Shown: piece after piece, positions 30,446-52,890 of the stretch
Numbering within the stretch: position 1 is the first letter of the stretch
Layout of the letters: every line of letters begins with the position of its first letter
Source: Pseudothioclava arenosa
GTDB lineage: Bacteria; Pseudomonadota; Alphaproteobacteria; Rhodobacterales; Rhodobacteraceae
Assembly (NCBI RefSeq): GCF_002358085.1
Contig: NZ_NTJD01000001.1
Span: forward strand, 248,001 to 312,000
DNA length: 64,000 bases
Reading direction: 5' to 3'
The notes under the pieces: model-generated
Seen by the model: only the letters and a program-made list of their open reading frames with translations
Database searches by the model: none
What the model was told of the DNA's origin: nothing
Translations under genes and position numbers: made by a program

Positions 30446-31231
30446 ATGCGCCGGTTCCTGCCCCTTCTGAGCCTGCTTGCGGCCCTTGCCTCCGCGACGA
30501 TCGCGCTTGCGCAGACGCCGCTTGAGCGGCTGGCGACGGGTGATGACGCGCGCGGCTGGGAGGCGGTCGGTCGGCTCAATCTTGGCGCCGGGAGCTTTTG
30601 CACCGGCACACTGATCGCACCCGATCTGGTGCTGACGGCAGGGCATTGCCTGTTCGATCCGCGCTCGGGCGAGATGCTGCCGGTGGACCGGATGGAGTTT
30701 CGCGCGGGCTGGCGCAACGGCCGCGCGCTGGCCTCTCGCAAGGTGCGCCGCGCGGTGGCCCACCCCGCCTATGCCTATCTCAGCGCCGACCGGCTGGGCC
30801 GCGTTGCCTGGGACCTGGCGCTGATCGAGCTGGAGCAACCGATCCGCCTGCCGCAGCTTGCGCCCTTCGACCTTGCCGCGCCTCCGCGCCAGGGTGAAAC
30901 GGTGGGGGTGGTGTCCTATGCGCATGACCGCGCCGAGATGCCCTCGCTGCAGCGTGAATGCGAGGTGATCGCGCGCGATACCGATGTGCTGGTGATGGAT
31001 TGCGTCGCCGATTTCGGCACCTCCGGCGCGCCGGTGTTCTCGATGCGCTCGGGCCACCCCGAGATCGTCTCGGTGATCTCGGCCAAGACGCTTTACAACG
31101 AAGAAAACGTCGCGATCGGCACCATGCTCGAAGGGCTGGCCGATCTGCGCGCGGCGCTGCGGTTGCGCAACCCCGATCCGCAGGACGCGCAGGTCAGCAG
31201 CTCGGGCGGGGCCAAGTTCGTGCGCCCCTGA
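30446..31231 (+). CDS. Secreted trypsin-like serine protease
   Basis: 261 residues with a signal peptide (residues 1-22, ending ALA-Q). The catalytic triad is visible: His67 in LTAGHC, Asp123 in WDLALIEL and Ser193 in GTSGAPVF. Chymotrypsin-fold, periplasmic or secreted; the pair C52-C68 fits the conserved His-loop disulfide. Substrate unknown. Stands alone between glcF and hsp20. Confidence 0.87.
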   Translation: MRRFLPLLSLLAALASATIALAQTPLERLATGDDARGWEAVGRLNLGAGSFCTGTLIAPDLVLTAGHCLFDPRSGEMLPVDRMEFRAGWRNGRALASRKVRRAVAHPAYAYLSADRLGRVAWDLALIELEQPIRLPQLAPFDLAAPPRQGETVGVVSYAHDRAEMPSLQRECEVIARDTDVLVMDCVADFGTSGAPVFSMRSGHPEIVSVISAKTLYNEENVAIGTMLEGLADLRAALRLRNPDPQDAQVSSSGGAKFVRP

Positions 31232-31259
31232 ACTCGCTTTGCGCCGGTTCGCGCAGGGT

Positions 31260-31288
31260 CTTGAACTCGGGTTTTCCACCTCCCATCT
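31260..31288 (+). promoter_or_regulatory. Heat-shock (RpoH-type) promoter of hsp20
   Basis: CTTGAA (31260-31265), 16-base spacer, CCCATCT (31282-31288). Both boxes fit the sigma-32 consensus CTTGAA / CCCATnT. It would start a leader of about 80 bases before the hsp20 ATG. Confidence 0.55.
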
Positions 31289-31305
31289 CTCTCTTGTCGG
31301 GGCGC

Positions 31306-31374
31306 CATGACGGGCCCCGGAGATGCCTGCCCCGTCCGGGGAGGCCCAACCGACATCGCTCAGGAGAGGATGCA
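31306..31374 (+). ncRNA. Candidate ROSE-like RNA thermometer leader of hsp20
   Basis: Two hairpins in the leader. A long GC stem pairs GGGCC-CCGG (31312-31320) with CCGG-GGA-GGCCC (31336-31347). A weak stem next to the start pairs CATC-(G)-CTC (31354-31361) with GAG-GATG (31366-31372), with a bulged G at 31358 and the purine-rich ribosome site AGGAGAGGA inside. A UCGCU next to the ribosome site and a single bulged G are ROSE hallmarks. No folding was calculated. Confidence 0.4.
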
Positions 31375-31842
31375 ATGCGTAGTTTTGATTTGTCCCCGCT
31401 CTATCGCGCCACCGTTGGCTTTGACCGCGTGGCGGACCTGATGGATCGCGTGCTGGCGGCCGATGTGGCCCAGCCCAGCTACCCGCCCTACAACATCGAA
31501 AAGACCGACGAGAATGCCTATCGCATCTCGATCGCGGTCGCCGGGTTCTCGGATGCCGAGCTTGGCGTCGAGCTGCGCGAGGGCGCGCTGATCGTGACTG
31601 GCCGCAAATCCGAAGACGAACCCGCCCGCACCTATCTGCATCGCGGCATCGCGACCCGCGCCTTTGAGCGCCGCTTTGCCCTTGCCGATCACATGAAGGT
31701 CACGGGCGCCGCCCATCAGGACGGCATGCTGCATATCGACCTTGTTCGCGAGGTGCCCGAGGCGCTGAAGCCGCGCCGGATCGAGATCGCCGCGCCGCAA
31801 CGCACCAGCGCCACGATCGAGGCCGAGACCTCCAAGGCCTGA
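31375..31842 (+). CDS. Small heat-shock protein (Hsp20/IbpA type)
   Basis: 155 residues. An alpha-crystallin domain spans about 38-130: YPPYNIEKTDENAYRISIAVAGF, GRKSE, then RGIATRAFERRFALADHMKV and the late GMLHIDL strand. ATP-independent holdase that binds unfolded proteins. Its N-terminus (MRSFDLSPLYRATVGFDR) is typical of class A rhizobial/IbpA proteins, the group most often controlled by ROSE leaders. Regulation by RpoH promoter and RNA thermometer is suggested by the leader. Confidence 0.93.
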   Translation: MRSFDLSPLYRATVGFDRVADLMDRVLAADVAQPSYPPYNIEKTDENAYRISIAVAGFSDAELGVELREGALIVTGRKSEDEPARTYLHRGIATRAFERRFALADHMKVTGAAHQDGMLHIDLVREVPEALKPRRIEIAAPQRTSATIEAETSKA

Positions 31843-31866
31843 TCGGGCCGAACGATCCAGACACGG

Positions 31867-31896
31867 ACGCGAGGCCTTCGGGCCTCGCGTTTTTTC
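31867..31896. terminator. Terminator between hsp20 and the ModE-like gene
   Basis: Perfect 10-bp stem ACGCGAGGCC (31867-31876), TTCG tetraloop, GGCCTCGCGT (31881-31890), followed by TTTTTC. Confidence 0.92.
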
Positions 31897-31901
31897 TTGG
31901 C

Positions 31902-32255
31902 TCAGCCGGATTTCGGTGTGGCGACCATGGCGCCGATCCGCGCGATTTCCTCGGCGCCGGCGCTTTGCAGCTTGGCCTCCAGCGCGCGGTAATCGGCGAC
32001 CAGCGCCGCGCCCGCCTTGGTCAGCCGCGCGCCGCCGCCCTTCGCGCCCCCGCGCGAACTTTCGACGACCGGCTCGGCGAAATGGGCGTTCATCTCCTCG
32101 ACCAGCTGCCAGGCGCGTTTGTAGCTCATGCCCATCGCGCGCCCCGCCGCCGAGATCGAGCCCTCGCGCCCGATTGCCTCCAGCAGCGTGGCCTTGCCCG
32201 GGCCAAGCATCAGATCGCCAAAATACAGCCGCAGCATCAGCCGGGTCAGGTCCAT
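31902..32255 (-). CDS. ModE N-terminal-type LysR-like DNA-binding regulator
   Basis: 117 residues: only the winged-helix domain found at the N-terminus of ModE (LLEAIGREGSISAAGRAMGMSYKRAWQLVEEMN, visible as the helix GSISAAGRAMGMSYKRAW). No molybdate-binding MOP domain, so it cannot sense molybdate as full-length ModE does; short proteins of this kind are common in alphaproteobacteria. Divergent from the MFS gene. No molybdenum genes are in view. Confidence 0.85.
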   Translation of the reverse strand: MDLTRLMLRLYFGDLMLGPGKATLLEAIGREGSISAAGRAMGMSYKRAWQLVEEMNAHFAEPVVESSRGGAKGGGARLTKAGAALVADYRALEAKLQSAGAEEIARIGAMVATPKSG

Positions 32256-32390
32256 CGGGCACCTCCTCGGGCCATCCTGCGGCGCGGCGGCGCGGGGCGC
32301 AAGGGCACGCGCGGAAATGGCCTTGCGCCGGGCGCGCGCGGGTGACAGCTTGCCCCGATGCGGCGGAGCCACGCGGCCCCGGGGAGAGAG

Positions 32391-52686: not shown

Positions 52687-52702
52687 CCGGGTGGATTGCC
52701 GA

Positions 52703-52799
52703 AACCTTCCCTCCGCCGGTCTTAACCGGTTCAGGTTCAACGGGTTCGCTTGCGCATCTCAGCCGGGGGCGCGAGGCCCCTCGGCACCCCGAGGTAGCG
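52703..52799 (-). ncRNA. TPP (THI-box) riboswitch
   Basis: All conserved THI-box blocks appear in order on the minus strand: GGGGTGC, CTGAGA (complement of 52757-52762), GAACCTGA (complement of 52731-52738) and GGAGGGAA (complement of 52707-52714). It lies about 60 bases upstream of thiB. Bound TPP should shut off thiBPQ expression. Confidence 0.95.
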
Positions 52800-52890
52800 C
52801 GAAACATAGCCCCGATGCGGGCGCTTGCAAGGGGAAAGCGCTTGGAATTTGGCCCCCGCGCCGCTAATCGGAGGGCAAAGGAGAGCGATC

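What the first reader, a model, noticed from the sequence alone, without database searches (positions are those of the whole stretch)
31260..31375. RpoH-type promoter and ROSE-like thermometer in front of hsp20
Seen: CTTGAA-N16-CCCATCT, an ~80-base leader, a GC stem, and a weak stem with a single bulged G that holds the ribosome site next to UCGCU. ROSE elements on small heat-shock genes of alphaproteobacteria show the same layout. Here the loop leaves AGGA exposed, so the fold may be a variant.
Basis: partly seen in the sequence, partly recalled or inferred. Interest (0 to 1): 0.55.

Follow-up and report, generated by a model that had tools for sequence, protein, structure and literature searches.

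The report
ROSE-like RNA thermometer before hsp20
The start of this heat-shock gene's messenger RNA very probably folds into a known kind of temperature-sensitive switch that hides the ribosome site when it is cool; it belongs to a form common in its bacterial family that the standard RNA library mostly misses at its cut-off.

Summary
CTTGAA-N16-CCCATCT (31260-31288) fits an RpoH promoter. A leader of about 78 bases follows with three hairpins, the last pairing the Shine-Dalgarno sequence with UCGCU around one bulged G (31358), before an IbpA-type hsp20 (31375). Rfam's ROSE (RF00435) aligns end to end but at 22 bits, cut-off 45. A covariance model from 14 related leaders, window excluded, finds the site at 69.8 bits, E 5e-13 in 64 kb, 80 of 80 relatives fetched (66 held out), and one site in each of 110 of 120 family genomes. 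Sixteen of 23 pairs show two-sided changes. It also finds the E. coli ibpA thermometer and 4 of 5 rhizobial-order ROSE leaders. The 'exposed AGGA' is a loop detail (GGA in 4 of 81), not a different fold. The genome's second hsp20 has a compact two-hairpin form. Melting was not shown: folding predicts little opening up to 45 C, and with some lengths of coding sequence hairpin III is lost. New member of a known kind; ROSE-like elements were already reported for a Roseobacter relative (PMC3230580).

The parts
31260..31265 (+). -35 element CTTGAA of an RpoH-type promoter
   Evidence: sequence; CTTGAA in 74, CTTGAC in 5, GTTGAA in 2 of 81 leaders; the bipartite pattern is unique in the window
31282..31288 (+). 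-10 element CCCATCT; with the Rhodobacter RpoHI numbering (C-37, T-36 T-35 G-34, A-12, T-9) the start is inferred at about 31297
   Evidence: numbering from passages of PMC3441632; start site inferred
31298..31319 (+). hairpin I: stem 31298-31303 with 31314-31319, bulged G 31304, CC/GG cap 31305-31306 with 31312-31313
   Evidence: 6 of 8 pairs with two-sided change, bulged G and both cap pairs in 81 of 81
31325..31345 (+). hairpin II: 31325-31328 with 31342-31345, bulged G 31329, 31330-31333 with 31338-31341
   Evidence: 8 of 8 pairs with two-sided change; one-base bulge G in 73 of 81, T in 6, GC in 1, none in 1
31354..31372 (+). hairpin III, the presumed thermometer: 31354-31357 with 31369-31372, bulged G 31358, 31359-31361 with 31366-31368, loop AGGA 31362-31365
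   Evidence: energy -9.0 at 25 C, -6.6 at 37 C, -5.5 at 42 C for the isolated hairpin
31356..31360 (+). UCGCU, the U(U/C)GCU anti-Shine-Dalgarno motif of ROSE-like elements
   Evidence: 77 of 80 relatives UCGCU, 3 of 80 UUGCU; motif definition in passages of PMC3669281
31366..31370 (+). paired Shine-Dalgarno GAGGA; GAGG is followed by 5 bases and then the ATG (range in 81 leaders 5-10)
31375..31842 (+). hsp20 (IbpA-type small heat-shock protein, 155 aa)
   Evidence: PF00011 E 2.5e-18; alignment with E. coli IbpA
31865..31892 (+). terminator-like stem with UUCG loop and T run after hsp20, so the message may be monocistronic
   Evidence: one such site found; shuffles mean 0.7, so weak on its own

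Best explanation
An RpoH-type promoter starts the hsp20 message at the foot of hairpin I. The leader of about 78 bases folds into two stable GC hairpins and a weaker third one in which UCGCU, with one bulged G, pairs with the Shine-Dalgarno sequence GAGGA. At growth temperature the third hairpin hinders ribosome binding; on heat shock it loosens and translation rises, while RpoH raises transcription. Shown here: the elements, their conservation, covariation and the match to ROSE-like leaders known from experiment. Inferred: use of the promoter, the start site, melting and the translational effect.
For: Model match, window not in the seed: 69.8 bits, E 5.1e-13 in the window and 2.2e-11 in the genome, next best there 18.9 bits at E 1. 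80 of 80 relatives match. 98.3% of pair cells standard, 16 of 23 pairs with two-sided change, 0 of 500 shuffles reach any of the five measures, slid controls pair at most 60.6% (the alignment was fitted to the model). UCGCU or UUGCU followed by GGAU before the start in 80 of 80. R1 sites lie directly before an hsp20 start in 42 of 42 fetched loci. The model finds E. coli ibpA (32.1 bits, E 1.2e-5 in 18.6 kb), which Rfam calls ROSE_2 at 100.4 bits. RF00435 matches in the family at E up to 1 fall on R1 sites in 33 of 36 cases. Two RpoH-like genes in the genome, one over the curated cut-off.
Against: RF00435 stays below its cut-off (22 against 45 bits). Folding energy of the leader is ordinary (z -0.47). 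Nearest-neighbour folding predicts almost no opening of hairpin III between 25 and 45 C in the leader alone (pair probability 1.00 to 0.98). Counting coding bases from the ATG, hairpin III is the favoured or co-favoured fold with 0-20 and 40 bases, is at about 0.3 with 25, and is replaced by an alternative fold with 30, 60 or 100 (ddG 1.6-4.5 kcal/mol). The competing long-range stem is not conserved (51.1% paired, shuffles 50.4%). No temperature or expression data exist here.
Confidence: 0.88

Rival explanations
1. The leader is a conserved structured 5' end that protects or folds the hsp20 message (RNA stability, ribosome standby) and hairpin III is only incidentally temperature-responsive; heat control comes from the RpoH promoter alone.
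For: Hairpins I and II show more covarying pairs; folding predicts little melting up to 45 C; hairpin I begins at the inferred start site, and a 5'-terminal hairpin is discussed as message protection for Pseudomonas ibpA (passages of PMC3669281).
Against: Hairpin III keeps its bulged G in 81 of 81 leaders and pairs in 98.9% of cells, and the same model finds the known thermometer of E. coli ibpA and 4 of 5 leaders that pass RF00435. The bulge weakens the stem: deleting it in silico adds about 4 kcal/mol, a weakening that a mere stability element would not need.
Confidence: 0.07
2. The leader is both a thermometer and the landing site of Hsp20 itself, which represses its own translation as E. 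coli IbpA does (PMC10474464, abstract start and passages); the invariant hairpin I cap would be the contact.
For: Hairpin I bulged G and CC/GG cap are invariant in 81 of 81 A-type leaders, recur in 29 of 30 B-type leaders by a strict count, in the RF00435 consensus and in E. coli. Residues Y34 and R93 of E. coli IbpA, tied to self-repression in that paper, align with Y and R in the window protein, and with F and R in the second Hsp20.
Against: No binding data; invariance can also come from RNA folding needs. It adds to the thermometer reading and does not replace it.
Confidence: 0.2
3. Chance resemblance: a GC-rich leader with a coincidental stem over the Shine-Dalgarno site.
For: Ordinary folding energy (z -0.47); Rfam below cut-off.
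Against: Match E 5e-13 with the window held out, and strong covariation.
Confidence: 0.01

Closest known systems
E. coli ibpA thermometer (Rfam RF01832, ROSE_2)
   Same: Similar gene product (MRNFDLSPLYR against MRSFDLSPLYR at the start); three hairpins aligned end to end by the window-clade model (32.1 bits); hairpin II CCUGUCC..GGAAGG with bulged G; hairpin III UCGCU with bulged G facing the Shine-Dalgarno site
   Different: The Rfam model RF01832 as shown starts at hairpin II and did not report the window at E up to 10; the window is GC-richer and has AGGA in the hairpin III loop
Rhizobial ROSE (Rfam RF00435)
   Same: Full-length alignment 1-94, hairpin I with bulged G and CC/GG cap, UUGCU/UCGCU hairpin before hsp20; R1 finds 4 of 5 Hyphomicrobiales leaders that pass RF00435
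   Different: Window scores 22 bits, cut-off 45; hairpin II is shorter and has a bulged G; the lower stem of the last hairpin is shorter (alignment)
Short ROSE-like thermometers of Pseudomonas ibpA (PMC3669281, abstract and passages seen)
   Same: U(U/C)GCU motif, a single G whose deletion represses (P. aeruginosa), sigma-32-type promoter-like sequences, temperature-insensitive first hairpin
   Different: Two hairpins; the window has three. The second hsp20 of the window genome (leader G000:C19:34978-35044) resembles the short form
ROSE-like elements of ibpA and hspD in Nautella sp. R11 (Roseobacter clade, PMC3230580, passages seen)
   Same: Same class, same broad clade, small heat-shock genes, recognised from sequence
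   Different: Reported in one sentence without coordinates or structure in the passages seen; no covariance model there

Membership tests
ROSE-like RNA thermometers (class as described in passages of PMC3669281) | U(U/C)GCU motif blocking the Shine-Dalgarno site in the 3'-proximal hairpin | tested here: met
   UCGCU 31356-31360 paired to GAGGA; 80 of 80 relatives have the motif
ROSE-like RNA thermometers (class as described in passages of PMC3669281) | imperfect pairing, here one unpaired G in the motif | tested here: met
   G31358 bulged; G in 81 of 81 at that column
ROSE-like RNA thermometers (length and hairpin number from passages of PMC10474464) | 5' UTR of 60 to over 100 bases with two to four stem-loops before a small heat-shock gene | tested here: met
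   three hairpins, about 78 bases, hsp20; start site inferred
ROSE-like RNA thermometers (class as described in passages of PMC3669281) | temperature-dependent melting and translation | not testable with these tools
   energy calculations are inconclusive and partly adverse
Rfam RF00435 (ROSE) | score at or above the gathering cut-off of 45 bits | tested here: not met
   22 bits, E 0.21 on 221 bases; none at gathering in the window; not listed at E up to 10 by the genome search, which scored 150 of 166 candidates; 0 of 61 relatives and 1 of 120 family genomes pass, the latter at a different hsp20 gene
Rfam RF01832 (ROSE_2) | match to the model | tested here: not met
   no match reported at E up to 10 on 31200-31420; yet the window-clade model finds the E. 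coli ROSE_2 site
RpoH-type (RpoHI) promoter | C-37, TTG at -36 to -34, A-12 and T-9, spacing kept | tested here: met
   CTTGAA-N16-CCCATCT fits with +1 at 31297 (positions from passages of PMC3441632); use by RpoH not tested

The most novel reading that the evidence does not exclude
The Rhodobacteraceae leaders are the link that unites Rfam's separate ROSE and ROSE_2 families into one ancestral ibpA leader RNA, and its invariant hairpin I cap (pyrimidine, bulged G, CC/GG, G), kept in alpha- and gammaproteobacteria and in both hsp20 paralogues, is not thermosensing but a protein-contact site, most likely for feedback by Hsp20 itself; members of the family would then run two graded switches, a three-hairpin one on hsp20-A and a two-hairpin one on hsp20-B.
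Probability: 0.2. Interest if true: 0.55.

Novelty: new member of a known kind. Interest (0 to 1): 0.3.

Why it matters
It shows that a heat-shock thermometer candidate is close to universal in a large bacterial family (110 of 120 genomes sampled) yet nearly invisible to the standard RNA library at its cut-off (1 of 120, and that one at another hsp20 gene), and it gives a covariance model that reaches both the alpha- and gammaproteobacterial ROSE families. It also makes testable whether the conserved first hairpin does more than fold.

Tried and rejected
Rfam alone as judge: rejected, because its two ROSE models miss the clade at their cut-offs while a separately built model finds it. Single-sequence folding energy as evidence: rejected, ordinary z-score. 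'Exposed AGGA makes it a variant': rejected; GGA is in the hairpin III loop of 4 of 81 leaders (the window with AGGA, three with UGGA), the one other genome of the same genus searched lacks it (L094), and the spacing of the paired GAGG to the ATG (5) is within the range 5-10 of the 81. A long-range stem (31295-31300 with 31350-31355) that the energy model prefers with some coding sequence: not conserved (four of its pairs tested). RNA model R2 was built by mistake without structure from an alignment with one stray two-base row and was not used. The pattern was mis-spaced and its zero is meaningless. Weak own-genome matches of R1 (14.6-18.9 bits) and of R3 below the hsp20-B leader (13.5-18.6 bits) were treated as chance and not followed. 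One RF00435 match (G071, C16) appears to lie inside a coding region and was judged chance (by eye). Trimming for the alignments first mis-set the start of hairpin I in a few loci (L040, L051, L071); these were not in the seed, and the model search placed them again.

Full report
What is there. The protein from 31375 is an Hsp20 (PF00011, E 2.5e-18) that aligns with E. coli IbpA over most of its length (MRSFDLSPLYR against MRNFDLSPLYR at the start). The leader folds into three hairpins, but its energy is ordinary for its composition (z -0.47). The promoter pattern occurs once in 64 kb against 0.05 expected.

Rfam. At gathering thresholds the window holds only a TPP riboswitch. With lax thresholds RF00435 (ROSE) aligns from its first to its last position to 31298-31381 at 22 bits, E 0.21, cut-off 45. 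The whole-genome form of the search, which scored 150 of 166 candidates, did not list the site at E up to 10.

Comparative test. All 80 carry U(U/C)GCU followed by GGAU just before the start (77 UCGCU, 3 UUGCU; sequences). A covariance model R1 was built from 14 of them, all from odd-numbered loci and picked for a hairpin II that aligned cleanly, the window excluded, with a three-hairpin structure drawn by hand on one relative. It finds the window at 69.8 bits, E 5.1e-13 (next match in the window 7.5 bits) and E 2.2e-11 in the 2.8 Mb genome (next 18.9 bits). It finds 80 of 80 relatives, 66 of them held out, the weakest at E 2.6e-4 over 569 kb. E-values of such models are rough.

Covariation. 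On the 81-row alignment, which was fitted to the model and so leans towards it, 98.3% of cells pair, 16 of 23 pairs have two-sided changes and no shuffle of 500 reaches any of the five measures; sliding partners by one to three columns drops pairing to 60.6% or less. RNAalifold on the same alignment returns the same three hairpins (24 pairs, 17 with two-sided change); on the earlier plain MAFFT alignment of 36 leaders it returned hairpins I and III but not II, which that alignment did not line up well. Six of 8 pairs in hairpin I and 8 of 8 in hairpin II have two-sided changes. Hairpin III, held by the Shine-Dalgarno sequence, has two such pairs, two that vary on one side and three invariant ones. 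Bulged bases: G in 81 of 81 (I) and 81 of 81 (III); in II G in 73 of 81, T in 6, GC in 1 and none in 1.

Promoter. In 81 of 81 leaders a CTTGAA, CTTGAC or GTTGAA box (74, 5, 2) lies 15-17 bases before a CCCANAT-like box (spacer 16 in 66; the box was the best-scoring one at spacers 14-18), and that box ends 7-11 bases before stem I (9 in 48). With the Rhodobacter RpoHI positions C-37, TTG at -36 to -34, A-12, T-9 (passages of PMC3441632) the window fits with +1 at 31297, one base before hairpin I. The genome has two RpoH-like genes (373 bits, over the cut-off, and 270.9 bits, below it); a third match of 142.6 bits lies in a 692-residue frame, probably a primary sigma factor by size, which is my inference. 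RSP_1572, listed among protein folding genes of the RpoHI regulon in that paper, is an Hsp20 as I recall; the passages seen do not name it so.

Spread and specificity. R1 matches 34 of 61 genomes drawn around the window, 31 of 37 in the family and 3 of 24 outside it, and in a larger draw 110 of 120 family genomes, one match each at E up to 0.01. The 42 fetched R1 loci checked, out of those matches, each have an hsp20 start right after the match (42 of 42). Of the ten family genomes without a match, one gave no Hsp20 (G019). Three others whose A-type leaders I read (G009, G017, G029) still show UCGCU before GAGGRU, so some misses are the model's.

Link to known thermometers. RF00435 passes its cut-off in 5 of 5 Hyphomicrobiales hsp20 leaders taken as controls (47.9-68.5 bits), RF01832 (ROSE_2) finds E. 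coli ibpA at 100.4 bits, and neither reports the three Rhodobacterales loci given in the same call (L207, L001, L094) at E up to 0.5. R1 finds E. coli ibpA end to end (32.1 bits, E 1.2e-5), 4 of the 5 Hyphomicrobiales leaders (17.5-26.2 bits, E 0.0002-0.013; L203 missed) and a Paracoccus leader (41.8 bits) in 18.6 kb. The whole E. coli record could not be searched. Within the family, 33 of 36 RF00435 matches at E up to 1, in 35 of 120 genomes, fall on the R1 site; one falls on an hsp20-B leader (G035), one on another hsp20 gene (G125, 53.3 bits, the only one over the cut-off; PF00011 E 2.7e-14) and one appears to lie inside a coding region (G071). In the wider draw 12 of 17 RF00435 matches fall on R1 sites, and 0 of 61 genomes pass the cut-off. 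Two separately built models thus point to the same sites; I did not see the Rfam seed.

Second hsp20. The genome has one more hsp20 (C19); with that protein as query 108 of 120 family genomes list two matches, 11 one and 1 none. The 30 B-type leaders read (the window genome's and 29 relatives, the best-scoring by protein) carry hairpin I with the same bulged-G cap (29 of 30 by a strict count). In 29 of 30 only 9-16 bases separate it from UCGCU, too few for hairpin II; L161 has 41. The last hairpin has the form GUC-G-CUU...AAG-GAC, with the bulged G in 30 of 30 and all six pairs in 28 of 30; GUC/GAC becomes AUC/GAU in 2 and CUU/AAG becomes CUG/CAG in 1. On 17 of them 7-10 of 500 shuffles reach four of the five measures and 116 the fifth, so the covariation there is modest. 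A model R3 of this form matches 100 of 120 genomes; in G005 its only match is an R1 site, in G082 and G090 a second match is one, and in G143 it lies where no hsp20-B was listed. The layout resembles the short ROSE-like elements of Pseudomonas (PMC3669281).

What speaks against. Nothing here shows melting. Nearest-neighbour folding of the leader keeps hairpin III closed to 45 C (1.00 to 0.98 in the window; mean 0.86 to 0.80 over 81 leaders). With 30 bases beyond the ATG hairpin III exceeds 0.5 in only 52 of 81 leaders at 25 C and is absent in the window. In the window this depends on the length taken, counted from the ATG: present with 0-20 bases (0.51-1.00) and 40 (0.68-0.91), about 0.3 with 25, lost with 30, 60 and 100. 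The predicted openness of GAGG in one longer transcript hardly changes between 20 and 50 C (0.25 to 0.28). The competing long-range stem is not conserved, and co-transcriptional folding would favour the local hairpin (inference). ROSE hairpins contain non-canonical pairs (stated in passages of PMC3669281) that such programs do not score well (my knowledge), so the calculation is not decisive either way.

Observation confirmed, interpretation supported. The 'variant' remark does not hold at the level of the fold. By Rfam's rule it is not a member of RF00435 or RF01832; by the published class description it is a ROSE-like element, and by model matches it stands between the two.

Prior art. Of the searches of the open library (I saw listings, and passages of some of the papers) the relevant finds are: ROSE-like motifs for ibpA and hspD of Nautella sp. 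R11, a Roseobacter relative (PMC3230580, passages); a ROSE match before hsp20 in Gluconobacter (PMC5756330, passages); short ROSE-like elements in Pseudomonas (PMC3669281, passages); ROSE-G (PMC12857270, passages; a related paper, PMC11342760, held none of the terms I looked for); and IbpA self-repression through its 5' UTR in E. coli (PMC10474464, passages). None of these passages describes a Rhodobacteraceae-wide element. The survey that PMC3230580 cites (Waldminghaus and colleagues 2005) was not read and may already list such members.

Noticed in passing
52691-52801, - strand: TPP riboswitch, 62 bits over a cut-off of 54.3.
   Followed up: no
L082 1317-1383 (G000:C19:34978-35044), outside the window: The second hsp20 of the same genome has a compact two-hairpin ROSE-like leader with UCGCU and a CTTGCA..CCCATAT promoter-like pair; model R3 of this form matches 100 of 120 family genomes, a few of these at R1 sites.
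   Followed up: partly
L199 426-517 (G125:C1:527325-527416): A further hsp20 gene (PF00011, no BLAST match to the two others) in one family genome has a leader that passes the Rfam ROSE cut-off at 53.3 bits.
   Followed up: partly
L201 5421-5512, - strand (E. coli ibpA leader): The Rfam ROSE_2 model as shown covers the leader from hairpin II on; the upstream hairpin I, with the same bulged-G cap as in Rhodobacteraceae, lies outside it.
   Followed up: partly
30446-31231: Trypsin-like peptidase gene (PF13365, PF00089) directly upstream on the same strand.
   Followed up: no
31905-32291, - strand: HTH_1-domain protein convergent to hsp20 (PF00126, E 9.3e-8); a ModE-like regulator by recall, not tested.
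   Followed up: no
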